From assembly GCF_001522545.3 (NCBI RefSeq), contig NC_031768.1, forward strand, positions 3,648,341 through 3,712,340: a stretch of 64,000 nucleotides of DNA. Direction: 5' to 3'. The notes under the pieces were generated by a model that worked only from the letters and a program-made list of their open reading frames with translations, made no database searches and was not told the origin of the DNA. This stretch comes from Parus major (Eukaryota > Chordata > Aves > Passeriformes > Paridae). Positions 6,241-55,650 of the stretch are shown here, piece after piece; the first letter of the stretch is position 1, and every line of letters begins with the position of its first letter. The position numbers and the translations under genes are program-made.

Positions 6241-7487
6241 GAATGTTTGAGGATTCTGACATGAACCAGATGTCCCCAGGACCAGCCTGTCTCCAAGCTC
6301 CTGGAGCAATGTGGGACATTACTCCTGGCTCCTGGTGGCTCAAATCCCACTCCCAAGGCTGAGGGCTGAGAGCCTTTGTGTTCAGAGAGAATTCAGGGAA
6401 GGTTTGCTATGCTGGGATCAACTTGAAAAAAGTAACTTGAAAATGCAGCATGTATTTTACAGTTCTGTTACATTTTAGTTTTTACACTTTAGATTTTTTT
6501 CATTGAAATAAATCCATCTACTTCCAAGCACTAGGTGTCCCAAGAGCATCTGATTAAGGACCTGGGTGCTCCAAAGTAACTGTTAAAGGACATGAGGCTG
6601 ATATCAGGACATTCACTGTTTGAGACACACAAGTCTAGAGCTGAGCAATTTTCATTTACTGAATCCTCTGGACACAGTTACAGCTGGGGCCAGGTGACCT
6701 GACAAACTATGTAAATTTCTGAATGAGTCCCTTAATATTTAATTGGAAAAAATTTAATAACTTCAAAAATGAATAACTTTCACCATGTAATTTTTTTATT
6801 GGCAAAAAAGCACTGAAAATTCATCAAGTCAGTTAATTTACTGAACCTGCTCTCTTGTCACTTTTGTAAATCTCATTACAAATAAAAAAAAGTTGGCAAA
6901 TGTATTCATATATCCACAAGTGACCAATAAAGTGGATAAATAAGAAAAATCTATTGACTAATCTCCTTGAAAACCTATTGTAGAACTCATAGGAGAATTT
7001 ACAAATTAAGCAGTATTCAAGTAACCTCATTGAACAGGACTGAGGGCATTTTTATCTGTACCACAAAAATTCTTGATCCAGTTTTTCAAAAGCATTTAGT
7101 GGATCCAAAAATATATATGTACATCTCATAGCATTTTCAAGGCATTAAAAAAGGTTAGGGACAAAACCTCCCCTGAATTTGGAATTTTAGTGCTTCAGAA
7201 ATAGATCAGTGCATGGCATCCTACTGAGGTGACCTGAAGTGATTATAATAGTTACAATTAAAATAAAGTGATTATGGAATCTCATGTGTCTGTGCATGAT
7301 TAAAGTTCTTAAACTTCAGCATTAGGAATTGAATTTTCCATGCTTTGGTCTAAGAACAAAGGTGAGACATTTTTGTTCTTTATTTTGCTTATGAGGGAAG
7401 AGGTATTTGGAAGATATATCTATATATACAAATATGTATATAATATAAGACAGTCCCACAAAAGTCTCGTCTCCTTTCCCCATTTTC

Positions 7488-7975
7488 ATAGATTACCAGG
7501 ATGGTTTGGGCTGGAAGGGACCTTAAATCCCACCCAGTGCCACCCCAGCCATGGCAGGGCCACCTCCCACTGTCCCAGGAGCTCCCAATGTCCAGCCTGG
7601 CCTTGGGCACTGCCAGGGATCCAGGGGCAGCCCCAGCTGCTCTGGCAATTCCATCCCAGCCCCTGCCCACCCTGCCAGGGAACAATCCCTGCCCAAGATG
7701 CCAAGATCCAGCCCTGCCCTCTGCCCCTGGCAGCCATTCCCTGTGTCCTGGCCCTGCAGCCCTTGGCAATTGTCTCTCTCCAGCTTTCCTGGGGCTCCTT
7801 CAGGCCCTGCAAGGCCACCCTGAGCTCAGCCCAAAGCTTCTCCTGGCCAGGCTGAACAATGGCAGCTGGGCCAGCCTTTCCTGCCAGCAGAGCTGCTCCA
7901 TCCCTCTGCTCATCCTGGAGCCTCCTCTGGGCTCTCTCCAGCAGCTCCAGCTGCTCCCTGGGCTGGGATCCAGGG
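7488..7975 (-). mobile_element. CR1 LINE fragment, GC-rich songbird type
   Basis: Contains GGTTTGGGCTGGAAGGGACC, CAGCCATGGCAGGGCCACC, GGCAATTGTCTCTCTCCAGC and GCTGAACAATGGCAGCTGGG. It lies 92 bp beyond the donor of the 8067-8222 exon. Sister copies with very similar text lie at 15124-15395 and 55100-55650. Confidence 0.92.
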
Positions 7976-8058
7976 TTTTCTATCCCTGCATACCTGTGTA
8001 CAATATTTACCTGAGACAAACAAACATTTCCTGGAAGTGGGAATGGAATGTGCTTTCA

Positions 8059-15123: not shown

Positions 15124-15395
15124 TGACACCAGCCCTGCCCTCTGCCCCTGGCAGCCATTCCCTGGCTCCTGGCCCTGCAGCCCTTGGCAATTGTCTCTCT
15201 CCAGCTTTCCTGGGGCTCCTTCAGGCCCTGCAAGGCCACCCTGAGCTCAGCCCAAAGCTTCTCCTGGCCAGGCTGAACAATGGCAGCTGGGCCAGCCTTT
15301 CCTGCCAGCAGAGCTGCTCCATCCCTCTGCTCATCCTGGAGCCTCCTCTGGGCTCTCTCCAGCAGCTCCATCCCTCTGCTCATCCTGATTAACGA
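15124..15395 (-). mobile_element. CR1 LINE fragment, right part of an interrupted copy
   Basis: Nearly identical to 7714-7945 over more than 200 bp (TCTGCCCCTGGCAGCCATTC onward). CCATCCCTCTGCTCATCCTG occurs twice in its last 75 bp, a small internal duplication. Confidence 0.9.
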
Positions 15396-22228: not shown

Positions 22229-22396
22229 CTGCTTCATCAGTGGTGATGGTGAGCTCGTTGCTGGCCTCGCTTTTGCCGATGCGGTTCTTGGCGTACATGC
22301 GGATGTTGTAGGTGGAGGACGGGTGCAGGTCGATGATGGTGGCTTGGTTTAGCTGAGGAGAAACGTCTCTGGTTCTCTGGACAGAATCCCAAGAGT
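22229..22396 (-). CDS. DSCAM: DSCAM internal exon: second half of fibronectin III domain 1
   Basis: This exon is 168 bp, phase 1 at both ends, entered after CTTATCAAACAG and left at GAAGCAG|GTATG. The translation runs [55 protein letters not shown]. The Tyr of [11 protein letters not shown] and the N-x-x-G turn (NRIG) are the standard strand F/G features of a fibronectin III fold. It follows the 37285-37413 exon across the intron that hosts the nested gene, so any transcript from the nested locus lies between these two exons. Confidence 0.97.
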
Positions 22397-22794
22397 CTGT
22401 TTGATAAGAAATATCAGTAGAAACAGACAAATAAATGGTGGTGTTCATGTGGATAATACAAGCAAGAAGTTACACTGTTTCATGCTGTCGCTGTGTTAAT
22501 CCAGAAAACACATTTTGGTCCAAGCAAATCTAGTGATCCCTTACTTGACAGCACTCCTGACTGCTCCAAAGGTGCTGCTCAGAACAATGACATCTTAGCT
22601 CTGGGGTCATCAGCAAATCCACAGAAATAGCTACTCTTTGAGGAGGTGGTGAGAGCAGCAAAGATTCCCCAGTTTTTGTGATTTTTTTGCCACTGAGACA
22701 TTGGAACAACTGCACAAAAATGTGAGCTGCTGCCCCAAAGGGATCTTCACTCAGTGAGAAAGTTGGCTGTGCTCAAAAAGAAAGGGAGGGAAGG

Positions 22795-24970: not shown

Positions 24971-26109
24971 TTCTCTTCTTTGCCGTTGTCTTGGAGTGGT
25001 TTATGCTGAGAGTCCATTCCAGAAGCCTCTGCTTTATGCCCAAGAAATAATTGTTGCATCTCCCAGGCCCAGGGCCTGGTGTGTGCAGGGCTGGGGAAGG
25101 GGAGCTTTGGGCTCTTTGGGTGAGCATTTTCCAAGCCTCACTGCCCAGGTGTCCGTGGTGCTGCACGGTTCGGTTTGGCTGGGCTTGCTTGGCTTTTTTG
25201 GCCCGTAAAAAGCTTTTCCCTTCCCTGGCCTGGAGGAGCTGCAGCAGCAATCTTTCTTTCAGCTCCTTGAGCTGAACCGAACAGCCACTGCTCCAACACC
25301 ACAGAGTGCGACCAGCAGGAGTAGGGCTGTCCTATTCCAGCCCCAAGCCTCGGGGAGCCGAGCTGGGCAGAGAAAGCACAGCAAGAGACTCCAGCCGAGC
25401 TGCTCGGTCTGTCCTGGACAGGAGGTCAGTGCCAGAGAGCCACCAGGGCTGTGCCTCCTGCTGCCTGGAACTCATCAATGGAATGTCCACTTCCCTCGGT
25501 GTGAAAGATGGCGCCATCTCACACCCTGTGTCAGGAAAGGGGTTTTCTTCCATGTTTGCCCCATTCTCCAGGAGCTTTTGGGTCTTTGTAGGGCAGGGGG
25601 TGAGTTCTGTGAGTATTCTGTTGTTAATTAACTATTGGTTTTGGTTTTTTTCACTTCCCTCCACTGGTATTCATTTTCTGTTTGTGGAGGAGGACAGTTG
25701 AAACTCTTTGGAGGAGACTATTCTTTGGAAGAATAGCATAGAAGGAGCATCCTCTCTTAAATTTGTTTCAAAACTGAGGCAGTCATCTTCATTGCCTTCT
25801 TCATCACCATCTTCATCTTCTTTTGTCTCCTTGTTTTATTCCTCCAGAAGTGGCCTCAGGCAGGGACACTGGAACAGCCTCTGTGGTGCCCACATGAAGC
25901 AGGAGGGATGTCTCCTGGGGACAGCCAGCTGCTCCCTGGGGGCCCTGGCTCCCAGCTGGGGGGGCTGTGCGGAGGCACAGAGCTCAGAGGAGGCTCAGAG
26001 GCACTGAGCTCTCTTCCATTTTGGCTGTGACTACTGATTCTACCTTTACAGCCAACCACTGCTGAAGGGCATAGACTTCTTTCAGCTGCTGCTTCAGTGC
26101 CTGGATCTC

Positions 26110-26378
26110 CTACAGCACCTGGCTCAGCATCTCCCCGGTCTGTGGGAGTCTGTGAGGCAGGAGAGGCGCTAGGCAGGGCAGGTGCTGCCTCTGCTGTGAC
26201 CTCCACATCCAAGGGGCTGGGAGAGCTGGGCTATGTTTCTTCTACAGTCATCTGTTGTTGGAAGACATACTCTTCCAGCTTCTGCCTCATGTGATGGAAG
26301 TCCATCAATCCCTGGATCAGGAACGCCTCGGTGATGTTCTGATCCTGGCTGCTGCTCGGGGTGTTGGAGGGGACACTG
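26110..26378 (-). pseudogene. Orphaned, inactivated repeat unit beyond the LTR-like insertion
   Basis: This is the continuation of the array on the far side of the insertion. It encodes QDQNITEAFLIQGLMDFHH, then MRQKLEEYVFQQQMTVEET, followed at 26233-26231 by an in-frame TAG where other units have CAG (Gln of EETQP). Past the stop the frame continues with PSSPSP and AAPALPSASP, then drifts out of register around 26150. It is separated from the long ORF by the insertion, so it has probably decayed since being cut off. Confidence 0.75.
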
Positions 26379-26911
26379 CATAGCAATGCGCTATGACCAG
26401 GTCCCTGAGGCTGCCTGTGTGTTCGGATCTGGAGCTCACTGCTAAAAGCCGACGATGGTAGATGAGACAGGTCCTTGTTTGGATATCCAAAAGCTTTATT
26501 GCCTTGAAGGGGGTCCAGGGACAAGAACAAAAGTGGGTGGAGGATCCAGGGTTTTATGTGAGTAAGAGGGGGCGGATCAGAGTCCAATGGGAACAGGGGA
26601 AAACAGTGCAGAGGTGGGGTTAGGGACAGGAACGACCAACAGGAAAACAGGGGTGGCAAACCCAAGCCAATGGGGATCAAGAGAAGAGAGAGGATTCTAG
26701 GGATTAACCATACAAGGTTATGGGGGCTGAACTGGGGCGACATCAACTTGATAAACCAATGCAGAAATCAGCTTAACAGTACATTAACATATAGCTGCAA
26801 AGACCTGGGAGAGAGGCATTCTCTCACCCCAGCTCAGGAGAGGCTATTTGTTGCTTCCTTTCCAAAACTGGGATATGGGTTTTTTAATCACAGGCCCTCG
26901 GGCCTCCAAAG
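26379..26911 (-). mobile_element. Solo-LTR-like insertion interrupting the repeat array
   Basis: About 533 bp unrelated to the array splits a repeat unit: the text before it (GAGGGGACACTG) and after it (GTGTGGGCTTTGTG) are adjacent in other units. CACTG occurs at 26374-26378 and again at 26912-26916, a plausible 5-bp target duplication. Read on the minus strand it has a TATA-like CATAAAAC at 26560-26553 and AATAAA at 26500-26495, the order expected of an LTR promoter and polyadenylation signal. The exact termini are uncertain because the standard TG...CA ends fall a base or two outside the repeat-defined borders. It supplies the present stop codon of the nested ORF. Confidence 0.7.
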
Positions 26912-29900
26912 CACTGTGTGGGCTTTGTGTCCCTCCTGATGGCAACAGAAGGAGCTGCTTCCTTTACCTGCTCTGGAGTAAGAGGCTTAGGCACCTCTTC
27001 CTCCTCAGCAGATCTAGACAGGGCAGCACCTGTCGGCTCGGACTCTGTGGGACAGCCTGGGACAGGAGAGCTCCCGGTGCTGCCACCTACATGGCCAAAT
27101 GGCCAGGAGAGCTGGCCTGTGTTCCTTCCATAGCCATCCATTGCTGGATGTCGTACTCTTCCTCCACCTTCTGCCTCAATTTGTAGGCCTCTATAATTTC
27201 CAGGATCATGATCTCCTCGGTGATGTTCTGATCCTGGCATGCTGAAGATGGGCTGGAGGCCACGGTGTTGTAGGGAACACTCTGAGCTCTGTGTCCCTGC
27301 TGACAGCCTCACCTCATTGACAGCAGAAGGAGTTGCTGCCTTTACCTTGTCTGGAGCAAGCAGCTCAGGTGGCTCTTCCTCCTCATCAGTTCTGAACAGG
27401 GCAGCAGCTCCTGGCTCGGACTCTGTGGCACTGTCCAGGGCAGGAGAGGTGCTGGGAAGGGCAGGTGCTGCATTTACTGCCACCTCCACAGCCACATGGC
27501 TGATGGAGCTGGGCTGTGTTTCTTCTACAGTCACCCAGAGTTGGAGGTCATGTTCTTCCTCCCGATTCTGCCTCAAGTGATGGAACATGACCAGTGACAG
27601 AAGCAGGATCTCCTCGGTGATGTTCTGATCCTGCCATGTTGAATAATGGCTGCAGGTCATGGTGTCAGAGAGGACACAGGGTGGTCTCAGTGTCCCTGCT
27701 GATGGCAACTCCTCACTGAAAACAGAAGAAGCTCCTGCATTTACCTCCTCTGGAGGGAGAAGCTCAGGAAGCTCTTCTACCCCATCAGCTCTAGACAGGA
27801 CAGCAGCTGCCAGCTCAGCCTCTGTGGGACTGCTTGTGACAGGAGAGTCAATGGGCAGGGCAGGAACTGCCTCTGCTGCCACCTCTATGCCCTTGAGGCT
27901 GGGAAAGCTGGGCTGTGTTTCTTCCACAGCCATCCATTGATGGAGGCCATACTGTCCCTCCAGCTTCTGCCTCTGTTTGTACACCTCCATCAGATCCAAG
28001 CTCATGAATTCCTCATTGATGTTCTGATCCTGCCATGCTGAAGCCTGGCTGCTGGTCAGGGTCTCAAAGGGGACCCAAGGTGGGCTCTGTGTCCCTGCTG
28101 AAGGCAGCTCCTCACTGATAACAGAAGAAGCTGTTGCCTTTTCCTCCTCTGCAGTGAGAAGTTCAGGCAGTTCCTCCTCATAAGCTTTGGACAGGGCAGC
28201 AGCTGCTGGCTCAGCCTCTGTGGGACTGCCCAGGACAGGAGAGGCACTGGGCAGGGCAGGCACTGCCTCTGTTGTCACCTCATTGACCCCAGGGCTGTGA
28301 GACCTTGGCTGTGTTTCTTCCAAAGCCATCCATTGTTGGACATCATACCCTTCCTCCAGCTTCTGACTCAGGTGATGATACAACACCAGCCCCTCCATCA
28401 GGAACTCCTTGGTGATGTTCTGATCCTGCCGTGCTGAAGAACAGCTGCAGGTTGGGGTGGCGAAGTGGACACAGGGTGGGCTCTGTGTCCCTGCTGATGG
28501 CATCTCCTCACTGATAACAGAAGGAGTTGTTGCCTTTACTTCCTCTGAAGTGAGAAGCTCAAGCAGCTCTTCCACCTCATCTGCTCTGGACAGGGCAGCA
28601 GCTGCCAGCTTGGCCTCTGAGGAACTGCTAGTGTCAGGAGAAGTGATAGGCAGGGTGGGCACTGCCTCTACTACCACGTCCGTGACCACAAGAATGTGAG
28701 AACTGGGCTGTGTTTCTTCCACAGCCATCCATTGTTGGAGGTTATACTCTCCTTCCAGCTTCTGCCAGAACTTGTACTCCTCCACTAGTTCCAGGATCAG
28801 GAGCTTGTCGGTGATGTTATGATCCTGCCAATCTGAAGCCTGGCTGCTGGTTAGGGTGTCAGAGGGGACACAGGGTGGGCTCTGTGTCTCTGCTGATGGC
28901 ACCTTCTCACTGATAACAGGAGTTGCTTCATTTACCTCCTCTTCAGTGAGAGGCTCAGGCAGCTCCTCCTCATCAGTTCTGAACAGGTCAGCAGCTGCTG
29001 GCTTGGTCTCCATGGTGCTGCCAGGGACAGGAGAGGTGATGGGCAGGGCAGGCGATGCTTCTGCTGACACCTCCAACGCTGCAGGGCTGTGAGACCTTGG
29101 CTGTGTTTCTTCCACAGCCATACATTGTTGGAGTTCATACTCTTCCTCCAGCTTCTGCCTCAGTTTGTACACCTCCACCAGTCTGTCCTCTGTGATATTT
29201 GGATCCTGGCATGGTGACCCCTTGCTCATGGTGTCAGAAGGAACACAGGGTGGGTTCACTTTCTCTGTTGATGGCACCTCCTTACTGACAACAGAAGGAT
29301 CTGCTGTCTTTACCTCCTCAGGAGTGAGAGGCTCAGCCAGCTCTTTCTCCTCAGCAGCTCTGGACAGGGCAATAGGTGCCAGCTTGGCCTCAGTGGGACT
29401 GCCTGTGACAGGGGAGGTGATGGGCAGGGCAAGCACTGCCTCTGCTGCCACTTCTGTGCCCTTGGGGCTGGGAGTCCTTGGCTGTGTTTCTTCTGCAGCC
29501 ATCCATTGTTGAACTCCATAGTCTACTTCTAGCTTATGCCTCACTTTCTCTTCTATCAGGTGTATGGGACTGCCCAGGACAGGAGAGGCACTGGGCAGGT
29601 CAGGTGATGCCTCTATTTCCACCTCCACAGTCACAGGGCTGGGCGAGCTCGGCTGTGTTTCTTCCACAGCCATCCACTGTTGGACGTTATACTCTTCCTC
29701 CAGTTTCTGTCTCAGTTTGTACATCTCCATCACTTCCAGGATCAGGAACTCTTCTGTGATGTTCTGATCCTGGCCTGCTGAAGCATGGCTGCTGGTCATG
29801 CCGTCGAAGGGGACACAGGGTGGGCTCTGTGTCCCTGCTGATGGCACCTCTTCACTGACAACAGAAGCTGCTGTATTTACCTCCTCTGGGGTGATAGGCT

Positions 29901-31011
29901 CAGGCAGCTCTTCCTCCTCATCAGCTCTGGACAGGGCAGCAGCTGCCAGTTCGGCTTCCATGGGACTGCCAGGGAGAGGAGAGGTGCTGGGCAGGGCAGG
30001 TGCTGCCTCGGCTGCCAGCCCTGTGCCCTCAGGGCTGGGAGAGCTTGTCCCCACCAGGGGACAAGGCTCAGCCTCCTTGCTCCTCTGTGGTTGCAAGGGT
30101 CTCTCCTGGATCTTGGAGCTGATGTCATGTCTCAATTGGGACAGCTCCTGGCTGCTCTCACGCTCCTCCCGTGTGGGCAGTTTTCTGTCACTCATATCTG
30201 CCCCCTGAGGCAACTCTTGGCATCTGGCGTCTGGTCTTTTTGACAGCTTATTTTCATTGCTGTCTCTCACTTCGGACAATTCTGCTTCTCTGCTGTCTTT
30301 CAACTGGGAGACATGGGAGTGCACTTCTTGTTCCAATGGTGATAGTTTTTCATACCTCTCACCTTCCCTTTGAGATGGCTCTTGGATATCATCCCGAGAA
30401 ATGTGGGAGTGCACATTTTCCCTTGGTGAGAGGTCTTGTTGCCTCTCATCTGCCCTCTGGGACATCTCCTGGGCATTGTCCCATTGAGAGGTGTGGGAGT
30501 GCTCGTCTTCCCAAGATGAGGTATCTTGGTACCTCCCACGTTCCCTCTGGTCCAGCTCTCGGATGTTGTCCCATTGGGAATCCTCTGGGACACTCGCATG
30601 TCTCCGTAAGGACAGCTCATGGGATCTCTCGTCTTCTTCCCATTCCAACTCCTGCTGCTCACTCATATCTATTTCCAATTGGAGTATCTCTTGGGTTGTG
30701 ACACATTCTTCCCATTCGAGCACCTCTTGGTATATCTCACCATCCTCTTCCCACTGGTGCAGCTCTTGGACTCTTGTAGTTTCTTCCCATTCACAGAGCT
30801 CTTGGTGTGCCTCACTGCAGTACTGGGAAACCTCTTGAACACTCACATGTACCTGGCATTGGTAGAACTCTTGGCTCCTCCTGGCTTCCCACTGGGAAAT
30901 TTCTTGGACTGTCATTACTTGCTGTTGGTACCTGTTTCTCGCTGTCATCTCTTCCCTCTGGGAAAGCTCCTCATCACTATCACTTTCCATCTGGGAAAGC
31001 TCTTGGTCCAT
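26884..31011 (-). CDS. Nested intronless ORF, about 1,375 residues, tandem-repeat protein of unknown function
   Basis: This is a single unspliced frame inside a DSCAM intron, on the same strand. I do not recognise the family. The first ATG, at 31011, has a strong context (A at -3, G at +4). The frame is open to a TAG at 31206-31204 but has no earlier ATG. Residues 1 to about 317 are polar and repetitive, rich in Glu, Gln, Ser and Trp, with segments such as QEISQWEARRSQE and LEWEEDERSHEL, probably helical. The remainder is a head-to-tail array of units of about 132 residues. Each unit carries QDQNITEEFLI, YKLRQKLEEEY, QQWMAVEETQP, an Ala/Pro/Ser-rich stretch and LPEPLTPEEV. One unit is shortened (near 29570). 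About 73 residues (27065-27285) are read out of frame relative to the other units. The last nine residues and the TAA come from an LTR-like insertion. I see no signal peptide or membrane segment. The array could be a decaying recent gene or a live lineage-specific one; the length of the open frame favours recent constraint. Confidence 0.6.
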   Translation of the reverse strand: MDQELSQMESDSDEELSQREEMTARNRYQQQVMTVQEISQWEARRSQEFYQCQVHVSVQEVSQYCSEAHQELCEWEETTRVQELHQWEEDGEIYQEVLEWEECVTTQEILQLEIDMSEQQELEWEEDERSHELSLRRHASVPEDSQWDNIRELDQRERGRYQDTSSWEDEHSHTSQWDNAQEMSQRADERQQDLSPRENVHSHISRDDIQEPSQREGERYEKLSPLEQEVHSHVSQLKDSREAELSEVRDSNENKLSKRPDARCQELPQGADMSDRKLPTREERESSQELSQLRHDISSKIQERPLQPQRSKEAEPCPLVGTSSPSPEGTGLAAEAAPALPSTSPLPGSPMEAELAAAALSRADEEEELPEPITPEEVNTAASVVSEEVPSAGTQSPPCVPFDGMTSSHASAGQDQNITEEFLILEVMEMYKLRQKLEEEYNVQQWMAVEETQPSSPSPVTVEVEIEASPDLPSASPVLGSPIHLIEEKVRHKLEVDYGVQQWMAAEETQPRTPSPKGTEVAAEAVLALPITSPVTGSPTEAKLAPIALSRAAEEKELAEPLTPEEVKTADPSVVSKEVPSTEKVNPPCVPSDTMSKGSPCQDPNITEDRLVEVYKLRQKLEEEYELQQCMAVEETQPRSHSPAALEVSAEASPALPITSPVPGSTMETKPAAADLFRTDEEELPEPLTEEEVNEATPVISEKVPSAETQSPPCVPSDTLTSSQASDWQDHNITDKLLILELVEEYKFWQKLEGEYNLQQWMAVEETQPSSHILVVTDVVVEAVPTLPITSPDTSSSSEAKLAAAALSRADEVEELLELLTSEEVKATTPSVISEEMPSAGTQSPPCVHFATPTCSCSSARQDQNITKEFLMEGLVLYHHLSQKLEEGYDVQQWMALEETQPRSHSPGVNEVTTEAVPALPSASPVLGSPTEAEPAAAALSKAYEEELPELLTAEEEKATASSVISEELPSAGTQSPPWVPFETLTSSQASAWQDQNINEEFMSLDLMEVYKQRQKLEGQYGLHQWMAVEETQPSFPSLKGIEVAAEAVPALPIDSPVTSSPTEAELAAAVLSRADGVEELPELLPPEEVNAGASSVFSEELPSAGTLRPPCVLSDTMTCSHYSTWQDQNITEEILLLSLVMFHHLRQNREEEHDLQLWVTVEETQPSSISHVAVEVAVNAAPALPSTSPALDSATESEPGAAALFRTDEEEEPPELLAPDKVKAATPSAVNEVRLSAGTQSSECSLQHRGLQPIFSMPGSEHHRGDHDPGNYRGLQIEAEGGGRVRHPAMDGYGRNTGQLSWPFGHVGGSTGSSPVPGCPTESEPTGAALSRSAEEEEVPKPLTPEQVKEAAPSVAIRRDTKPTQCFGGPRACD
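30110..31011 (-). repeat. Degenerate Glu/Gln/Trp repeat region, N-terminal part of the nested ORF
   Basis: The N-terminal part of the nested ORF is built from short related segments such as QEISQWE, QEVSQY, QELCEWEE, QELHQWEE, QEILQLE and QEMSQRAD. Phrases of the type HSHxSQ recur at spacings of roughly 86-90 bp: GTGGGAGTGC-like plus-strand words lie near 30312, 30402 and 30487. The pattern suggests decayed tandem duplication and a mostly helical, acidic polypeptide. I cannot assign a function. Confidence 0.75.
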
Positions 31012-31249
31012 ATTGGTGAAGGGCTTCTCCTCCTCCTCCTCAGTCCCTGTCAATGGCAGGACTGACCTGACCACTGCCCCTGACCACTGCCCGCTGGAGC
31101 TTCCAGCCAGCTGGGCAAAGGGCTGGGGGACCAGGAGTTGGAGCTGGCTTTGTCCTTGTTGCTGTTGGCATCTGTCGCGATCAGCGTCTATCACTGTCGG
31201 CGTCTAGCGCAGATGGGTTCAGGGAGCTGCTTCCTCCTGAGAGAGCAGC

Positions 31250-32250
31250 TCCCCTGGGACTGGGGACCTCAGGGCTCTGCGCCCCTTGGATCCCCTCAGC
31301 CAGGCTGGGGCTCCCTGATGTCACAAGGGCCTCTGGCCACCACCGTGTCCCACATCACAGAGGGCCCTGACCCCACGCGCCCAACGTGTCACAAAGGGCC
31401 ACCCCCGGCAGCCCAACACCAGCGCAGCGGGCAGGCAGCGGCCCGGAGCAGCCCCCGGACCCCCTCGTGGCCTTGTGGCCCCTGCTGTGCCCAGAGCCCC
31501 GAGAGGCTTTGGCCACGCTGGCACACGTGTGCCAGCCCCAGCCCCGCACTGCAGAGCCCGGCCTTTGCAGCCTGCGCTGCGCCGGCCACGAGCAATTGGC
31601 CTTTGCAGCGACGTGCCGGGGAGCTGTGGGCAGCGGCTGCAGGTGCCGCGGGAGGCCGGGGAGCAGGGCCGGCCCTCAGGGCTCTGCCCGGCCAGCGGGG
31701 CTCGTCGCTGCCTTCAGCAGTGACACGCAGGGGCACCGAGCGCAGCCGCGGCGCCTCGGCCGGGCCCGGGGAGCTCAGCGGCCCAGGGGCACCACGCGAG
31801 GCCGGGGCCACCTGGCTCGGGGCAATGGCCGCGGCCCCGACTCTCGCAGCTCTCCCCTCGGCCGTGCGGCGCCACGGGGCCAGAGCCCGGGCCCGGGGCT
31901 CGCTCCCTGCTGCCAGCAGGGCGCTGCCGAGGGCTCCCCGCCCGCCGGGGCCGGGGCCGGCCGCTGAGGGAGCGGCGCCGCCATTGCTGCCGCCCTCAGG
32001 GGCTCTGAGGGGAGCGCGGCTCCCGCCGGCCCCGCTCCGCCCGCACGGGCAACAAAAGCACGGAGCACAAAGACACACGGAGCACAAAGACACACGGAAC
32101 ACAAAGACACACGGCGCTCAAAATGTGTCCGTGCCCTTCCAAATGCATTCGGACAGGGCTGGGGTCGGCTGCGGCAGCATCGGCACACGGCTGCTCCCGG
32201 GCCAAATCCCCTGTGCAGATACCGGGGCTGTGTGAAGCGACACCAAACGA
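31250..32250. promoter_or_regulatory. CpG-rich block just upstream of the nested ORF (candidate promoter)
   Basis: This stretch of roughly 0.9-1 kb is strikingly GC- and CpG-rich compared with the AT-rich introns around it, densest at about 31400-32050. It lies directly 5' of the nested ORF's ATG (31011, minus strand), where an intronless gene would keep its promoter and 5' UTR. A CRE-like TGATGTCA sits at 31315-31323. Long open frames on both strands here are probably a by-product of few stop codons in GC-rich DNA. No TATA box is evident. Promoter activity is inferred, not shown. Confidence 0.5.
32064..32114. repeat. 17-bp tandem repeat, three copies
   Basis: Three consecutive copies of AGCACAAAGACACACGG lie at 32064, 32081 and 32098, the third with one change (AAC for AGC). 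A partial copy precedes them. They lie at the edge of the CpG-rich block. Confidence 0.9.
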
Positions 32251-33194
32251 ACGGGGTTTAGTCTCTTTGGGAGAAAGAAATGCACTTTGGGAGTGTTTTA
32301 GCTTCCTTGAGGATCAAAACTATTTTCGATGGCACTCGTCTGTTGTACCTGGAGTTCAAAAGATTCAATAAATAAGTAATTACGAACGTGTGTGGTTCAA
32401 AAGTCATAGAGGGGTTGTTAGGAGCAACAAAGATTAAGTAAAGAAAAACTGCACTATAAAAAACTTAGACAGTTTTGTCTCTTGTTGTCCTTATGTTTTT
32501 AAACTTTTAAATTTGTTTCCTGTGCTCTTTATTTTGGAAACATTGCAGCAAAACTGAGCAACATCTGAGAAAAAAAAATCAATATTTGGGTGCTAAGCTT
32601 CGATGTGGAACTCCTGGAGGATTCAAACGCTTCAGACCTGTCTGTGCACAAAAGCACCTCTCGCTTCCAAGGCTGCATGGCAGCACGCGAGGAGTAAAAT
32701 CAGAGTTACTCCTGATTTCATCGCCTTGCAGTGCATCATTTATCCAGAACCTCCTCCAAGTGCGCTGAGGGAGAGGAGACAGATCAAGTGTGGTTTGGAT
32801 AATCTGTTTTCTCTCAAATTTTCCCACTCCTGGCACTGCTTTGAAGTGCCAGCCTGGAGGTGGGACCATGCCTGATGTCCCCCAAGCCTCTCCTCTGGCC
32901 CCGCAGGGCAGCTCCACCTGAACAACTCCTTTTCCCATTGTGGGAGTCTCCTTTGGTGTGGAAAAGAAAGAAAGGAGAATTCCTGCCCTCCCCTCTCTCA
33001 GGGCTGCAGAAGTGCTCAAACTTCATTCCTGCTGTTCCCACATAGAGGAACACTGGCCTAGGGACTCTGCTCTTGGATATTGGGCAGGGGAGAAGGGAAA
33101 CACCTGGCTTGTCCCTATGGATAGAAGAAATGGGTGAACATCCCATCCCAAACAGTCATGTGGGATTTCTTTGCCATCCTTCAGTCGTTCTTAT

Positions 33195-33545
33195 TTGGTT
33201 TTGGAAAGCAGAGAGAAGGAGAGGGCCTAGGAAAGGAGCAATCCTTCTGTACCCCCTGGCAGGAGGGGACAGCCGGGGGGGTCGGGCTCTGCTGCCAGGG
33301 AACAGGGACAGGAGGAGAGGTCAGGCCTCAGGCTGGGCCAGGGGAGGCTCAGGGTGGGCAGCAGCAGGAATTTGCCCATGGAAAGGGAGCTCAGGCCTTG
33401 GCAGGGGCTGCCCAGGGAGCTTTGCAGTGCCCATCCCTGGAGGTGTCACCTGGACGTGGCACTCAGGGCTCTGGGCTGGGGACAAGGTGGATATCGACCA
33501 CAGGTTGGACTCGATGGTCCTGGAAGTCATTTCCAGGGTTATCTC
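33195..33545 (+). mobile_element. CR1 LINE fragment
   Basis: GGGGACAGCCGGGGGGGTCG, GGGCTGCCCAGGGAGCTTTG, CATCCCTGGAGGTGTCACCT and GGTTGGACTCGATGGTCCTG are in CR1 3' order. Confidence 0.9.
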
Positions 33546-34623
33546 CTTGTTGTGTTTACAATAAATTATCCAGACATATAATAGGAAAAGGGATGGAAAT
33601 CACCTAAATGCACTAACCATTCTTTTTCACCCGAGCATTGAATTGCTGCTGCTACTACAAAAAAAAAACAACAACCAGAATTTATCAGTTTCAAGCATCT
33701 TGGTGTCTTTGTGAGTTGGCATCCTTCATTTCTGCCTTACTGCAGGCAGTGTTCCCCCTTTAACCTCTGCAGCTTTCTGTGGGGATGTCCCTGGAGGCTC
33801 TCAGGAGTGTTTTACAGATGGGTCACTGTGGGCAGGGTTGCAGAAAGCTCAGCAGATAACAAAGATGAGTTTAAAAATAGAAAGCTCACCCAGATACAAA
33901 GTATTTGCAGAAACTGTGTGAATTCTTTTGTAAGGGTTTGCTGGAAGTGGCACAAGTTGTCACAGTGGCACCTGCACTCAGCTGGTTTCAGGGCTTGTTT
34001 CCTTATCCAGGTGGCTTTGCTTAAACACAGAATATTTAGGAATCGACATTCAAGTGCTTTTGGTTAGTACTAAAATGTATTTTTACTTTGGTAACTGAGT
34101 TTGTCACAGCTTCCTCTGTGGGATGTTTTCAGGAAAGGAATTTCAAAAAAGACCTGCTTGGTATGGAGATTGTATAAAATTTCCTTGGAGGATGATGAGA
34201 AATTTTTTTTTAAATGTAGTCAAATTCCTGTATTTTTCACTTGGTTGTTTCAAATAATGACCTCAGAGTGGCAGGACTCTGTAGCTACTGAAATTAATAC
34301 TTACTGGCTACTGAAATGAAAGAAAGATGTTTTAAAATTTCTGATGATTCTTTGTAGGTTAAGTAATGACATCATAAAGAAAGAACAAGATGAAAACCCA
34401 GTCTCCTTTCTATTGTCTATTTATGATATGCATGGACTTCAGGAGCTTCTTTCGATACCTGTACCCCTTTTTTTGAGGGCTAAAATAAACCAAGTGCAAT
34501 CCTTTTAAAATTAAGAAAATTAAGTCAGTCCAGATAGAAAATAATTTCTCTTCATTTTTTTTTTTTATTTTTTATTTTTAAATCTGTGTTAATAAGAAAT
34601 AAGAAAAAAACCAAAACTTTATT

Positions 34624-37284: not shown

Positions 37285-37413
37285 CTGACTTGTTCTTGCA
37301 CTCGATGTCGTAGCCGGTGATGGGGCTGTTGCCATCGAAGCCCATGGTCCACCTGAGGGCGATGCTCCGAGCTCTCACCTCCCGGATCTCTATCTCAGGG
37401 GGGTCGGGGGGTT
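37285..37413 (-). CDS. DSCAM: DSCAM internal exon: first half of fibronectin III domain 1
   Basis: This exon is 129 bp, phase 1 at both ends, entered after TTTGCCCAG and left at AAGTCAG|GTAAG. It encodes [17 protein letters not shown], then [20 protein letters not shown] with the conserved strand-B tryptophan, ending ECKNKS. It is continuous with DSWDSV at 22396. The 14.9-kb intron that follows holds the nested repeat-protein ORF on the same strand. The motif [18 protein letters not shown] is diagnostic of DSCAM. I recall DSCAML1 as having FDGNSIITGFDIEYKNKS. Confidence 0.97.
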
Positions 37414-38830
<1,417 letters not shown>

Positions 38831-40047
38831 CTATAGGAGTTGGAAAAGAGGTGATGGATTGAACAGCACGCAGAGAAAATAAACCAACAGCTTGTCTGAG
38901 TGGCGCAAGAAAAATCGCACAGACTGTTCTCCTTGACAGCAATAAATAGATACTGCAGGTTACACACATACATTTGCATAGGGAAACTTCCAAAATGCTG
39001 AGATTATCAAAGCCAGCAGCACCTGGGCTGAGGGCACAGGCTACCAGCTCGACATGTGTAGTCAGGAGCTGGAGTTCCACCTATTCCTGCAGCTTCTCCT
39101 TAGGAGCCTTGTTTCCAGTTCCTCACAAGTTTGCCAAGTGTTTAACTGTTGGCTGAAATTTGCCATACAAAATGCTGCCTCCTGCTGCCTCCAAATTTTT
39201 CTGGCTATTTCTGAAAATAATTCAAGTGGCTGAAGTCTGTGTGGAGGAAACAAAGGTTCAAACACTGGTGTGAACCCTGTAGTGTTCAGCATGGTACCTC
39301 ATAATAAAGTTTTGTGTGGTCTTTCTTTTCAATTTGTTGTTTAACAGCAAGGAAATTTATATATAATATTTAAAACCATGATCATAATGATATTTTTCTG
39401 CAGGACCACTGCTTCATTCAAGGTACAAGAAAGAAATAATTTTTTTTAAACGAGCAGATATTTGAAATACTATTTCCTTCTCATTGTTCAGTGTGCTGCT
39501 CCACAAATTATTTACAGCACACTGTTCAAACTGTGCCCTGCAAACAGACATTCATTTTCTCACAGCACTTTCCTGTGAATTCACCCATTGCAGAAACACG
39601 AGTGAATTTATTTACACCAGCCCTGACACCATGGAGAGCATTGCCACCATTTCATGTAGGGAATTAAGGAAGCAGATGCATGATAACGTTTGTGGCTGCT
39701 TGACAAGTTGCCACATATTAGCTGAGCCATGGAAACTCCACGTGCTCTTTATTCCTCAGCAAAAACCAGGTGATGTGAGCACAGCTCCCAGTCACCACTG
39801 GTTAAGATAAATGGATTCATTTCCCACTTGCTGGAAGGAAATGGGAGAGTTATCATCTGAGATGTGGCAACTTGTCAAGCTGTGCTCACCTGCACGTGTG
39901 GCTGAGCTTGGAGACAGGGAAACAAAAATTTCCAGAGCCCAGTTTGAGACATGTAGGGCCTTCCTCCCCTTCCCTCAGAGTCCTGAGCAACAAGTAACCT
40001 TTCATGTGTTCATAACAGCTTCCACTGAGCTCAGCTGCAGCCAGGAG

Positions 40048-40305
40048 GGCTCAGTACTTCTGCAGATCAGACCCCAAGGGCTCAGTACTTCTTCAAATCA
40101 GACCCCAAGGGCTCAGTACTTCTTCAAATCAGACCCCAAGGGCTCAGTACTTCTGCAAAATCAGAGCCCAAGGGCTCAGTATTTCTGCAAATCAGAGCCC
40201 AAGGGCTCAGTACTTCTGCAGATCAGACCCCAAGGGCTCAGTACTTCTGCAGATCAGACCCCAAGGGCTCAGTACTTCTGCAGATCAGACCCCAAGGGCT
40301 CAAGG
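40048..40305. repeat. 31-bp tandem repeat, about eight copies
   Basis: Units begin GGCTCAGTACTTCTGCA and end CAGACCCCAAG. They start near 40048, 40079, 40110, 40141, 40173, 40204, 40235 and 40266, with a partial ninth. One unit carries an extra A. Because 31 is not a multiple of three, the long plus-strand open frame across it cycles through three peptide versions and is probably accidental. Confidence 0.95.
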
Positions 40306-42019: not shown

Positions 42020-43574
42020 TCATTTTTTTGGCAGGGCAGCTTGCTACATAATTCAATATTCAATATTCACAGCACATAAAGGGACTGAACTAATAAGTGT
42101 TCAGATATGTGGACAATAAAGAACTGATAAAAATGTCTGCATCTTTCTGATGGGCTGCTGTTGTACTTGCTGACTGCTACATGTTTTACCAGTGTGTGTG
42201 ACAGTAATGATCTATCAAAATGAGGGCTCAATTAAACCAGGAGCTGCATTAAATTAAAAGAAAGGCTCTGCACCAAGGAGCTTACATGGATGTGTTGAGT
42301 GCGTAGCTGAACTGTGCTGAACTGAAAGTATAATTAAACTGACAATAAACCTAGCTAGATTTGAGTTTTTATTGTACTCAGAAGGTATTTGCAGAACAGT
42401 TTGGACATACCTGTCAACTTCATAACCATTCTTTTAAAAGTGACTTAAATTTTAATGTTGAAAAAGGTAGCCTTCTTAGAAAGAATTGTCTTAAACCTTA
42501 AGTATTTTCATGTTTTGGAATTAAAATTTCCTGCAACAGGAAAAATAAATAAATAAGAAATGCTTGGAATGTTTTATTGCAAACCCCAGACATGGCATCT
42601 TTGAATGGATGATCCCTTTGGTGTCCTTTGCTGGGTGTCATCCCCACATGGTTTGTCCACCACTGAACAGCACCTGGATTTCTGTCTCTGGAAAGCATCA
42701 AAGCCCACGAGTCTCTCAGTTCAGGCCCAGGAGAAGCTGGAAAGCCCTGGACAGCACACAGAGCTGTTCTTTCTGAATGACTCTGTCTACACTTCTAAAG
42801 CATGTGAGGCATCAACCATGAACCCCCTCCCTGAGCTCCTGCCCTCTGCAGGAGACTGGGGCTGCCTCCTGCAGTAGCCCCTTGTTTTTATGCATGAATG
42901 GTTGCCTCTTCTTATCAGAACAACTCACTCCTTCCATCTGAGCTTCTCTGGGTCCCTGTTTTAATCAGATGACACTGGCAGAGGATCTGATTTGAGGCCT
43001 TCCAATCTTTGCCCTTGCATCGGTTGTGTTTGTTGCCGCACAGCAGAATAAAAACCCTTATTTAAATGAATTACTTTAATTGCCAGCCTGTAATGTTAAT
43101 GCTTGGTGGCATGACCTTTTCACATGCCAGAGCTGCTAATGCTTGGATATGACAATATGTCAGGATGCAGCCTTTTCTGTTCAAAGGCTTCCTGAACCAA
43201 ACCAAACTGAGCTGGGGATTAAAAGGGCCCGTGGAGCCGTGGGTTTGAGTTACCAATGGGATCTAATTCCAGGAGGGACTCTGAGAAAGGTCTTGTGAGA
43301 GGCAGGAGGCTCCACTTGCACTAGTAATGAAGTACATCTTATTTAACTATTTGGCTATTAGGTACTCATCAGTGTTGTCCAAGAGGAGAATTTGAAGAGA
43401 ATAAATTATGAATAATCTAAATAGAAAATTAGGATGAGTCTGACTCTACATTCCAAAGAATGGAAATAGCCTCAGTTTCATCTGGTGTGTGCCCACATAC
43501 CCACAAGGTTACTTTCAGAAAGTTGGTTTTTTTGTGGCCATCTGCTTGTTCCTCCAAACCCAGAACAACCAGTG

Positions 43575-43790
43575 CTGTACAAGATCACAGAATGATTTAG
43601 ATTGGAAAATCCTTCCCAGCCCATGGAGTCCAATCTGTGGCCTGTCCCCACCTTGTCCCCAGCCCAGAGCCCTGAGTGCCACGTCCAGGTGACACCTCCA
43701 GGGATGGGCACTGCAAACCCCCCTGGGCAGCCCCTGCCAAGGCCTGAAAACCCTTTCAGTGAAGAAAATTCTTCCTGATTTTTTTTTTCC
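43575..43790 (-). mobile_element. CR1 LINE fragment
   Basis: GATCACAGAATGATTTAGAT, CCTTGTCCCCAGCCCAGAGC and CCAGGTGACACCTCCAGGGA match CR1 in reverse. It belongs to the same subfamily as the 33195-33545 copy. Confidence 0.9.
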
Positions 43791-45410
43791 TGAAATGCAT
43801 ACATCCTTTTAGGCATTTTGTAAAATAGGAGACCAAATTCACAAGAGTGCCAGGCTATTGAGGAGTCCACATTACCATCATTAGCTTGTGCCACCTCCTT
43901 TCTTCCTTCCACAATGTCCCCAGCCTCCCACATGTCCCTCCCTCTGCACTTCTCTCTCCTCTCAGCACAACAGGCTCTAGACCCCTTCACCTGTCCCTCT
44001 TTCTTCCTGCTTCAACCTCCTCAGGTTCTCACATGCCCCCTAATCCTTTATATTTTTCTCCTCCAGCCTCATTTCCTGTCCCTGGTTAACTCAGCCAACC
44101 TCCCAAGCCCCCTGAAGGGTTTTCCCCTACAGCTGCAGTCCTCCTTCCCATCGAGATCTCCTCCTTGGAGTTTCCCTGGTGGTGGTGGGAATGTTCTGAG
44201 CCCACACAGGAGATGAGGGGTGAGGGGTTTGTGCCTCCCCACGAGGTACCAGAGCTCCTCTGCAGGTGAGCCTTGCTTTTCCCTGCTTCACCAGTGGGAT
44301 CACACAGAAAATGGGACATCTGGACTTGGATTGAAATCCCACAGATACCCAGGAGCCTGTCCCAGACACTCCTGCCTCCCTTTCAGGTCCTGCTCTGGGT
44401 GACAGTGCCAAACCAAATCCCATATCTTGCTTTTAAAAACCAAAGGCCACCTTGCAAAGCTCATTTTTTCCCCACAACAAACTTTCTTAATAAGAGCAGC
44501 ATAAAAACATGTAAAGAAAGATGACTTTATTCCTCAGATACTGCTTTATCCCTGCTTATCCTTCCCTTCTCCTCACATAATCTTCCACACGGATTCCTTA
44601 TTGCCATAGCAATGCCTCACAGCTAAATATTTCCCCTTCCTCCAAAGCTGATTTTTTACTCTTCACAATTTATCTCCAATGATCCTAAACTGTAAGCTCT
44701 TCTTTTTATCTTCCTCTATGTCAAAAGATTTCTGGTAACAAAGCCACATTCCCAAGGATATTTTAGGCAATGCATTTCTTCATCCTCCAACTATCTTTAA
44801 TCAAATTACTGATGCAAATAACTGAGATAAATATGCTGGTTCTTTACTGACAAAATAATCTAGAAAACTGTAAATAAGCAAGCTAAATCTGCACTACATA
44901 TGCATGAGATATTCTCTTAGGAAATCTTAAAAATAAGCAAAAGCATTTAGAAATGTATTTAGATGATTCAGATGCCATATTAAGTGTGTCTGTGCCTTAT
45001 ATCCCTTCAAAAGTGCATTATATCCAGAAACATAATTATATTTATATATATACATTTAGATCAGAGGATTTTGGAAGGGAAGGGCATGTTGCTGTGCAGG
45101 TTCAAGGAATGGATATTGCCATGTTCCACAATTTTGGAGTAGTTTCACCACGGGAAAAATTAATCCAGTTCTGTTTTCTTTAGGGTTCTCCATGCCTTTG
45201 TCTGAAGCTGAGTGGTGCTGGGCACAGTTAGAGATCTATTGGTCAAAACTGGACAAAGCAGAAGCTACAATTTATAAATCATGGAAATTTCCATTTTCAA
45301 GGTATGAATATATCTGCCAGCAGCATTAATTCAGGAGTTTTGCCTGTTTAGAGTTGGGCTTTCTTTTTTTCTGTTTGCCCCTTTCTTCATGGCAACCCAG
45401 CAAGAAAATG

Positions 45411-55099: not shown

Positions 55100-55650
55100 A
55101 TCATTGAATTATAGAATGGTTTGGGTTAGAAGGGACCTTAAAGATCATCTCATTCCCAGTTTCTGCCATGGCAGGGACACCTCCCACTGTCCCAGGCTGC
55201 TCCAAGCCCTGTCCAAACCTGGCCTTGGGCACTGCCAGGGATCCAGGGGCAGCCACAAAATCTCTGGGCAACCTGTGCCAGTGATTCACCACAAACACAG
55301 GGAAGATTTTCTACCTAACATCTAATCTAACCCTGCCCTCTGTCAGTTTGAAACCATTCCCTGGCTCCTGGCCCTGCAGCCCTTGGCAATTGTCTCTCTC
55401 CAGCTTTCCTGGGGCTCCTTCAGGCCCTGCAAGGCCACCCTGAGCTCAGCCCAAAGCTTCTCCTGGCCAGGCTGAACAATGGCAGCTGGGCCAGCCTTTC
55501 CTGCCAGCAGAGCTGCTCCATCCCTCTGCTCATCCTGGAGCCTCCTCTGGGCTCTCTCCAGCAGCTCCAGCTGCTCCCTGGGCTGGGCTCAGGGCTGGGG
55601 CAGCTCTGCAGGTGGGGTCTCACCTGAGCAGGGCACAGGGACAGACTCTT
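55100..55650 (-). mobile_element. CR1 LINE fragment, GC-rich songbird type
   Basis: At about 550 bp this is the longest CR1 piece in the window. ATAGAATGGTTTGGGTTAGA starts it, GGGCACTGCCAGGGATCCAG lies within, and it ends past GGTGGGGTCTCACCTGAGCA. It shares about 230 near-identical bases with 7750-7960 and 15155-15370. Confidence 0.93.

What the first reader, a model, noticed from the sequence alone, without database searches (positions are those of the whole stretch)
26884..31011. Undescribed intronless repeat protein nested in a DSCAM intron on the same strand
A ~1,375-codon unspliced frame with a strong ATG context and a modular layout (acidic Trp/Gln-rich first third, then units of about 132 residues) sits inside a neuronal adhesion gene. 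I cannot place it in any family. Multi-kilobase frames do not survive by chance in AT-rich avian introns, and the units differ from one another while staying open, which suggests past selection. It may be a lineage-specific gene born or amplified in songbirds.
Basis: partly seen in the sequence, partly recalled or inferred. Interest (0 to 1): 0.88.

Follow-up and report, generated by a model that had tools for sequence, protein, structure and literature searches.

The report
Passerine-only gene family inside DSCAM intron
Inside an intron of the nerve-cell gene DSCAM, this bird genome (likely a tit) carries an unbroken 1,375-codon frame of an unnamed, fast-changing gene family whose named relatives in our searches all come from perching birds, and it likely still makes a protein.

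Summary
The frame is real and where reported: 1,375 codons, minus strand, between two consecutive DSCAM exons on the same strand. It is not an orphan. Three protein searches gave 84 relatives; the 79 with a named source are all passerines (24 genera, oscines and suboscines), under chance names such as "titin-like". The closest is blue tit LOC111929170 (296 of 317 N-terminal residues identical). A barn swallow gene model fuses a family member to the same DSCAM exons, so a copy lies in or near this intron there too. The window's own genome shows at least 23 places (the window included). Nine of 15 other copies read share an upstream block, and at least one also a long 3' flank, so copies moved as DNA, not as spliced messages. 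The window copy has a strong CpG island at its 5' side. Units hold no stop despite 297 differences from their consensus (about 9 expected), so the frame was selected; unit dN/dS is about 0.76, so loosely. The tit copy multiplied a linker-plus-helix module (six full, one short, one frameshifted) and lost the family's second acidic domain and basic CPC tail. Expression and function are untested.

The parts
26884..31011 (-). open frame, 1,375 codons, no intron
30061..31011 (-). N-terminal acidic Trp/Gln-rich domain, residues 1-317; 296 of 317 identical in blue tit
29650..30048 (-). unit 1 (linker + helix)
29479..29649 (-). short unit (57 aa, middle missing)
29098..29478 (-). unit 3
28705..29097 (-). 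unit 4
28306..28704 (-). unit 5
27910..28305 (-). unit 6; helix predicted at residues 85-129 of the unit
27511..27909 (-). unit 7
26941..27510 (-). unit 8, out of unit frame from about 27290 and back in it by about 27072; the shifted stretch is also in the blue tit protein
31228..31483 (-). upstream block shared with nine other copies on five contigs in all; the TATA-like box of five copies is changed here
31401..32400 (-). CpG island, likely promoter
26440..26893 (-). LTR-like inserted segment (named from its layout; its repeat search did not complete), limits approximate
26495..26500 (-). AATAAA in that segment, possible present poly(A) signal
26108..26377 (-). relic unit beyond the segment, with a TAG stop
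25836..25916 (-). relic of the family's C-terminal basic CPC tail with its stop
25365..25835 (-). 3' non-coding flank shared with the copy at C1:1.70 Mb
37286..37384 (-). DSCAM exon upstream of the host intron
22230..22403 (-). DSCAM exon downstream of the host intron

Best explanation
The frame is an unspliced, C-terminally truncated member of an unnamed gene family whose 79 named relatives in our searches are all passerine; it sits in a DSCAM intron with a CpG island and a family-shared block just upstream, from which it is likely transcribed and translated. Copies are inferred to spread as DNA segments that hold the upstream block, the intronless coding region and 3' flank, so a copy can work wherever it lands, including inside another gene. 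The complete family protein has an acidic N domain with Trp-acidic motifs, a Pro/Ala/Glu linker plus one long helix, a second acidic domain with SDWEE motifs, and a basic helix ending in CPC. Predicted mechanism: a mostly disordered scaffold whose helices and Trp-acidic motifs hold partners, tethered to membrane by the basic, probably lipidated tail. In tits the linker-plus-helix module was multiplied (six full, one short, one frameshifted copy), while a deletion, frame changes and an LTR-like insertion removed the second acidic domain and the tail, so the product would be a soluble multi-helix version. Shown: anatomy, family, location, shared upstream block, past coding constraint. Inferred: transcription, translation, scaffold role, lipidation.
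For: Relatives: (84 proteins, 79 named, all passerine). Ten-row clade, SH-aLRT 100, with crow, sparrow, Zosterops and the DSCAM-fused swallow model. That swallow model joins a family C-terminal half to the window's DSCAM exons. At least 23 places in the own genome, window included; three N-free frames end in the canonical tail (L024 450 aa from its ATG, L027 839 aa, L037 421 aa). CpG island: of 302 N-free 400-bp windows only the three starting at 31401, 31601 and 31801 reach GC 0.55 and CpG ratio 0.6. Upstream block aligned in 10 of 16 copies; 31250-31429 differs from the C1:1.70 Mb copy at 6 of 179 sites where coding dS is 0.25-0.32. No stop in six units against about 9 expected; 81 missense and no nonsense changes against blue tit where about 4.4-4.8 nonsense are expected. 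Unit helix predicted, pLDDT 66-94 by block.
Against: No transcript data. Unit dN/dS 0.76, bootstrap 0.59-0.99: weak constraint only. The copy lost two conserved family regions and its last unit is frameshifted. The nonsense test uses frames picked for being open. The TATA-like box of five other copies is changed here, and the upstream stretch 31150-31249 differs at 24 of 87 sites from the same paralogue. Six of 16 copies showed no match to the upstream block. Several own-genome matches contain stops. Tree made by a short search; the tit branch is long (1.35) and of odd composition, and the swallow row fills 30% of columns. Models are low in confidence outside helices (mean pLDDT 54.5 and 62.1).
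Confidence: 0.68

Rival explanations
1. It is a decaying copy: once coding, now a pseudogene whose long frame has not yet been hit.
For: Lost domain and tail, frameshifted last unit, a different end from blue tit, unit dN/dS near 0.76.
Against: First 1,255 codons open in both tits with 81 missense and 0 nonsense changes in 1,077 aligned codons; CpG island kept; part of the upstream block 97% identical to a paralogue.
Confidence: 0.27
2. It is a processed retrocopy of a spliced gene elsewhere.
For: No intron; A/G-rich run after the relic stop; 13-bp direct repeat at 32519 and 25769.
Against: Homology to the C1:1.70 Mb copy includes the upstream block and goes about 470 bp past the stop, beyond the A/G-rich run; the 3' copy of the direct repeat lies in that shared sequence, so it does not mark an insertion site.
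Confidence: 0.03
3. It is part of a transposable element.
For: Dispersed copies.
Against: No Pfam transposon domain in 8 members scanned; found copies number in the tens; copies share an upstream block and a protein tail, and no terminal repeats were seen (not searched for systematically).
Confidence: 0.03
4. It is an alternative exon of DSCAM.
For: Same strand, same intron; the swallow model joins the two.
Against: Own ATG and CpG island; paralogues far from DSCAM; the swallow join is a gene prediction that also ends in an interspersed repeat.
Confidence: 0.02

Closest known systems
Blue tit LOC111929170 (predicted, 1,217 aa)
   Same: Same start; 296 of 317 N-domain and 700 of 760 aligned unit residues identical; same short unit and same shifted last unit
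   Different: Lacks stretches of 127, 20 and 31 aa; ends differently after ..VKE
Barn swallow DUI87_15597 (predicted, fused to DSCAM FN3 exons)
   Same: Family C-terminal half placed upstream of the same DSCAM exons on one strand
   Different: Keeps part of the second acidic domain that the window copy lost; the N part is not in the model
House sparrow 'titin-like' P0003/P0004 and crow P0046-P0048
   Same: Same 10-row clade; one to two linker-plus-helix units
   Different: Second acidic domain and CPC tail kept; no large unit array
Passeriformes-specific genes of the B10K survey (154 reported; DNAJC15L the most widespread; PMC7759463, passages seen)
   Same: Genes restricted to perching birds
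   Different: DNAJC15L is described as a retroduplicate of a known gene; no parent was found for this family. Whether it is among the 154 could not be read

Membership tests
the unnamed passerine family described here | acidic N domain with Trp-acidic motifs and shared start | tested here: met
the unnamed passerine family described here | linker plus helix unit | tested here: met
the unnamed passerine family described here | second acidic domain (SDWEE) | tested here: not met
   sparrow P0003 residues 457-893 have no tblastn match below 26884, while residues on both sides map to 25964-25926 and 25964-25839. Lost in this copy; filing rests on descent, shown by the other parts
the unnamed passerine family described here | basic helix and CPC tail | tested here: not met
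   only a relic at 25916-25836, outside the frame
the unnamed passerine family described here | shared upstream block | tested here: met
   10 of 16 copies read, the window included
processed retrocopy | copy stops at the transcript ends | tested here: not met
titin, trichohyalin, RP1L1, unc-89 (names given by sources) | Pfam domains of those proteins | tested here: not met
   no hit above cut-off in 8 members
kinesin light chain Trp-acidic ligands | recalled Trp-acidic pattern enriched over shuffles | tested here: not met
   2 matches against 1.15 in the window protein; in 7 proteins tried none passed the shuffle maximum, the highest being P0020 with 5 against a mean of 1.69
lipid-anchored membrane proteins | C-terminal lipidated cysteines | not testable with these tools
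   tail sequence only

The most novel reading that the evidence does not exclude
Perching birds own a private, self-promoting gene family that copies itself as complete DNA units, rebuilds a different protein module in each copy (linker-helix array here, Trp-acidic array at C1:5.40 Mb, SPGE array at C32:15.69 Mb, a large array in swallows), and has kept one copy running inside DSCAM since before tits and swallows parted.
Probability: 0.45. Interest if true: 0.82.

Novelty: new variant of a known kind. Interest (0 to 1): 0.64.

Why it matters
Few genes are known to be shared by all major passerine lineages and missing elsewhere (an abstract start listed, PMC10016047, calls the growth hormone duplicate the only one known). 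A multigene family of that kind, scattered in databases under wrong names, would be a concrete candidate for what is genetically special in over half of all bird species. It also offers a nested gene inside DSCAM whose effect on its host gene can be tested, and points to gene models that likely fuse family members with DSCAM and DONSON.

Tried and rejected
Target-site duplication: a 13-bp direct repeat flanks the locus; random pairs of equal size reach 13 bp in 2.3% or 3.1%, and in 0.3% when the stretches are short. Dropped, because the 3' copy lies in sequence shared with the copy L024. The idea that the stop codon overlaps a poly(A) signal in all copies was dropped: other copies read GAGTAAA or GATTAG. 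Kinesin light chain binding: pattern not enriched. Pfam and PDB: nothing significant. Viral contigs: 9 stretches matched a pattern, none a relative. No fold search was made because the models are mostly low in confidence. Papers: nine searches, judged from listed titles and abstract starts; lists were capped (searches matched over 3,000 papers each, 10 listed). Two papers were opened, one in outline and passages, one in passages. Six locus names gave no paper. Supplements could not be opened. Absence outside Passeriformes is not proven: each protein search scored only about 8,000 candidates. Lengths of open frames given for some copies are inflated by N gaps; only N-free frames are cited.

Full report
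What is there. On the minus strand, 31011 to 26884 is one open frame of 1,375 codons. It starts in good context (A at -3, G at +4), has an acidic Trp/Gln-rich first 317 residues, then units of 127-133 residues with one 57-residue short form. DSCAM exons at 37384-37286 and 22403-22230 lie on the same strand and cover consecutive residues of the probe, so the frame sits in one DSCAM intron of about 14.9 kb. The window is part of a 114-Mb contig in a 1.02-Gb, 1,669-contig genome. From its closeness to blue tit and the recalled size of that assembly this is likely great tit; no tool named it.

More than chance. Six full units differ from their majority consensus at 297 sites and hold no stop. Random change of the same amount gives 9.5 (kappa 2) or 8.8 (kappa 4) stops on average, and zero stops in none or in 0.02% of 5,000 runs. 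Pairwise dN/dS among the six units has median 0.76, bootstrap range 0.59-0.99; the helix part is lower (mean dN 0.23, dS 0.47) than the linker (0.25, 0.28). So selection kept the frame, but loosely. Against the blue tit protein there are 81 amino-acid changes in 1,077 aligned codons and no stop, where 4.4-4.8 would be expected (P about 0.01). Both frames were picked for being open, and the blue tit model may hide difficult places as introns, so this test is weaker than it looks. No blue tit DNA is held, so dS between species could not be measured.

What it is. Three protein searches returned 84 distinct relatives. Five come from unnamed sources; the 79 named ones belong to 24 genera, all passerine (Pithys looked up, the other 23 placed from general knowledge), among them suboscines: Pithys, manakins and tyrant flycatchers. 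The weakest hits had E = 1e-23, 1e-15 and 7e-23 although the limits were 1, 0.01 and 0.1, so the edge of the family is sharp; but each search scored only about 8,000 candidates. Sources call the proteins titin-like, trichohyalin-like, retinitis pigmentosa 1-like 1, SRCAP-like, FLO11-like and so on; Pfam finds no such domain in 8 members scanned. In a tree of 56 of the 85 proteins (near copies left out, the swallow fusion cut to its first 260 residues) the two tits fall in a 10-row clade (SH-aLRT 100) with crow, sparrow, Zosterops and that swallow protein; the 10 suboscine rows form their own group. The search was a short one, the tit branch is long, and the swallow row fills 30% of the columns, so inner order is unsure. 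In the swallow, nine clusters standing for 36 member sequences lie on one 6.45-Mb scaffold, a large local array.

Same place in the swallow. Protein P0079 (barn swallow DUI87_15597) begins with the family's helix, linker and part of the second acidic domain, runs through an acidic stretch, and continues as DSCAM FN3 exons that match the window at 98% (22397-22230), 100% (12884-12645) and 96% (11045-10890). It is a gene prediction that fuses two things, but it needs a family copy upstream of this exon on the same strand. The same intron is the simplest reading; another upstream intron is not excluded.

How copies spread. In the window's own genome searches show 23 separate places, the window included (8 on contig C1 counting the 1.11-Mb cluster once, 4 each on C32 and C33, 2 on C2, one each on C3, C4, C7, C8 and C17). 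Two are weak (C1:43.43 Mb, C3:51.46 Mb), several matches contain stops, and the tool calls such counts lower bounds. The copy at C1:1.70 Mb (L024) is a complete, stop-free member of 450 residues from its ATG. It matches the window from 31429 through the start (80% over 608 bp) and again at 25961-25365, about 470 bp past the relic stop (75%); L025 and L034 share shorter 3' pieces. Of 15 other copies read (L024-L038), nine match the upstream block, in whole or in part, and align with the window; six do not (L025, L026, L029, L030, L033, L036), some beside N gaps. Five copies have a TATA-like box there; the window, L024 and L034 read ATCCAAGG instead. Between window and L024, 31250-31429 differs at 6 of 179 sites but 31150-31249 at 24 of 87; coding dS is 0.25-0.32 and dN 0.19-0.26. 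So one part of the block is either constrained or homogenised. Over all, 5' non-coding divergence is 0.116 and 3' 0.185. These copies moved as DNA with their upstream region. Among 23 pairs of paralogous frame pieces (none includes the window), dN/dS ranges from 0.23 to 1.09, one undefined.

Own promoter. Of 302 N-free 400-bp windows across the 64 kb, only those starting at 31401, 31601 and 31801 reach GC 0.55 and CpG ratio 0.6; those at 32001 (ratio 0.94) and 35001 (0.83) just miss the GC limit. The median ratio is 0.08. A CpG island kept at such a ratio is usually unmethylated in the germline (general knowledge), which speaks for an active promoter just upstream of the start. Pieces of the island recur at 11 other places; at C1:5.40 and C1:17.11 Mb they lie upstream of a family copy in the same direction, at C32:15.69 Mb downstream of one.

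How the tit copy changed. Complete relatives end in a second acidic domain and a basic helix with CPC, for example KRPSRFRRALRALRGLFRCPCLRPRPEE in Sylvia. In the window, beyond the present stop, there is an LTR-like segment (named from its layout; no second copy in the window; the genome search did not complete), a relic unit with a TAG stop, a relic of the QALKQQLKEVYALQQ helix with stops, and the relic tail 25916-25836; the second acidic domain is missing. The last unit is out of frame from about 27290 for some 70 residues, a change shared with blue tit, whose final residues differ again. Meanwhile the linker-plus-helix unit, present once or twice in crow and sparrow, was multiplied. Other copies expanded other modules: a Trp-acidic motif at C1:5.40 Mb and an SPGEA array at C32:15.69 Mb.

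How it may work. AlphaFold gives a long N helix, the unit helix, two short helices (one in the tail) and 316 of 551 residues under pLDDT 50 in a crow member, and a 45-residue helix with block pLDDT 66-94 in the tit unit. The best guess is a disordered scaffold with helix beads and Trp-acidic contact motifs (284 of 493 Trp in 27 members are followed by Asp or Glu), membrane-tethered in complete members by the basic CPC tail and soluble in tits. A kinesin-binding reading was tried and not supported. Everything from transcription onward is inference.

What is known. No title or abstract start listed describes the family; those lists were capped and the library lacks most subscription papers. The B10K paper (PMC7759463, passages seen) reports 154 Passeriformes-specific genes; its table could not be opened, so members may be listed there. 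The songbird novelty paper (PMC4377847, outline and passages) does not hold the word DSCAM in its main text and set aside 28 intron-less candidates, which could include this family.

Noticed in passing
window 40046-40302: 31-bp minisatellite, 8.3 copies at 95% match, inside an open frame, in another DSCAM intron.
   Followed up: no
window 7486-8019, 15126-15371, 55355-55576 (minus): Three copies of a repeat encoding ELLERAQRRLQDEQ...; the swallow DSCAM-fused model ends in the same repeat.
   Followed up: partly
window 33073-33564 (+) and 43478-43990 (-): Two ORFs in opposite directions share a stretch like FAVPIPGGVTWTWHSGLWAGDKV; probably an interspersed repeat.
   Followed up: no
L030 (C1:5398000-5405500): Family copy whose N-terminal Trp motif is multiplied (EHSQWGDVRVQELFPWE...) instead of the linker-helix unit.
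   Followed up: partly
L027 (C32:15686000-15693500): Open 839-residue family member with an SPGEA-type array on a 74.5-Mb contig; related sparrow, hawfinch and whydah proteins lie on contigs of 73-84 Mb, perhaps the Z chromosome (guess).
   Followed up: no
P0033, P0079: Public gene models that fuse family members with a DONSON-named gene (Empidonax) and DSCAM (swallow); likely annotation errors.
   Followed up: partly
window 31250-31429 against L024: 97% identity to a paralogue 2 Mb away although neighbouring and coding parts differ far more; constraint or gene conversion, not decided.
   Followed up: partly
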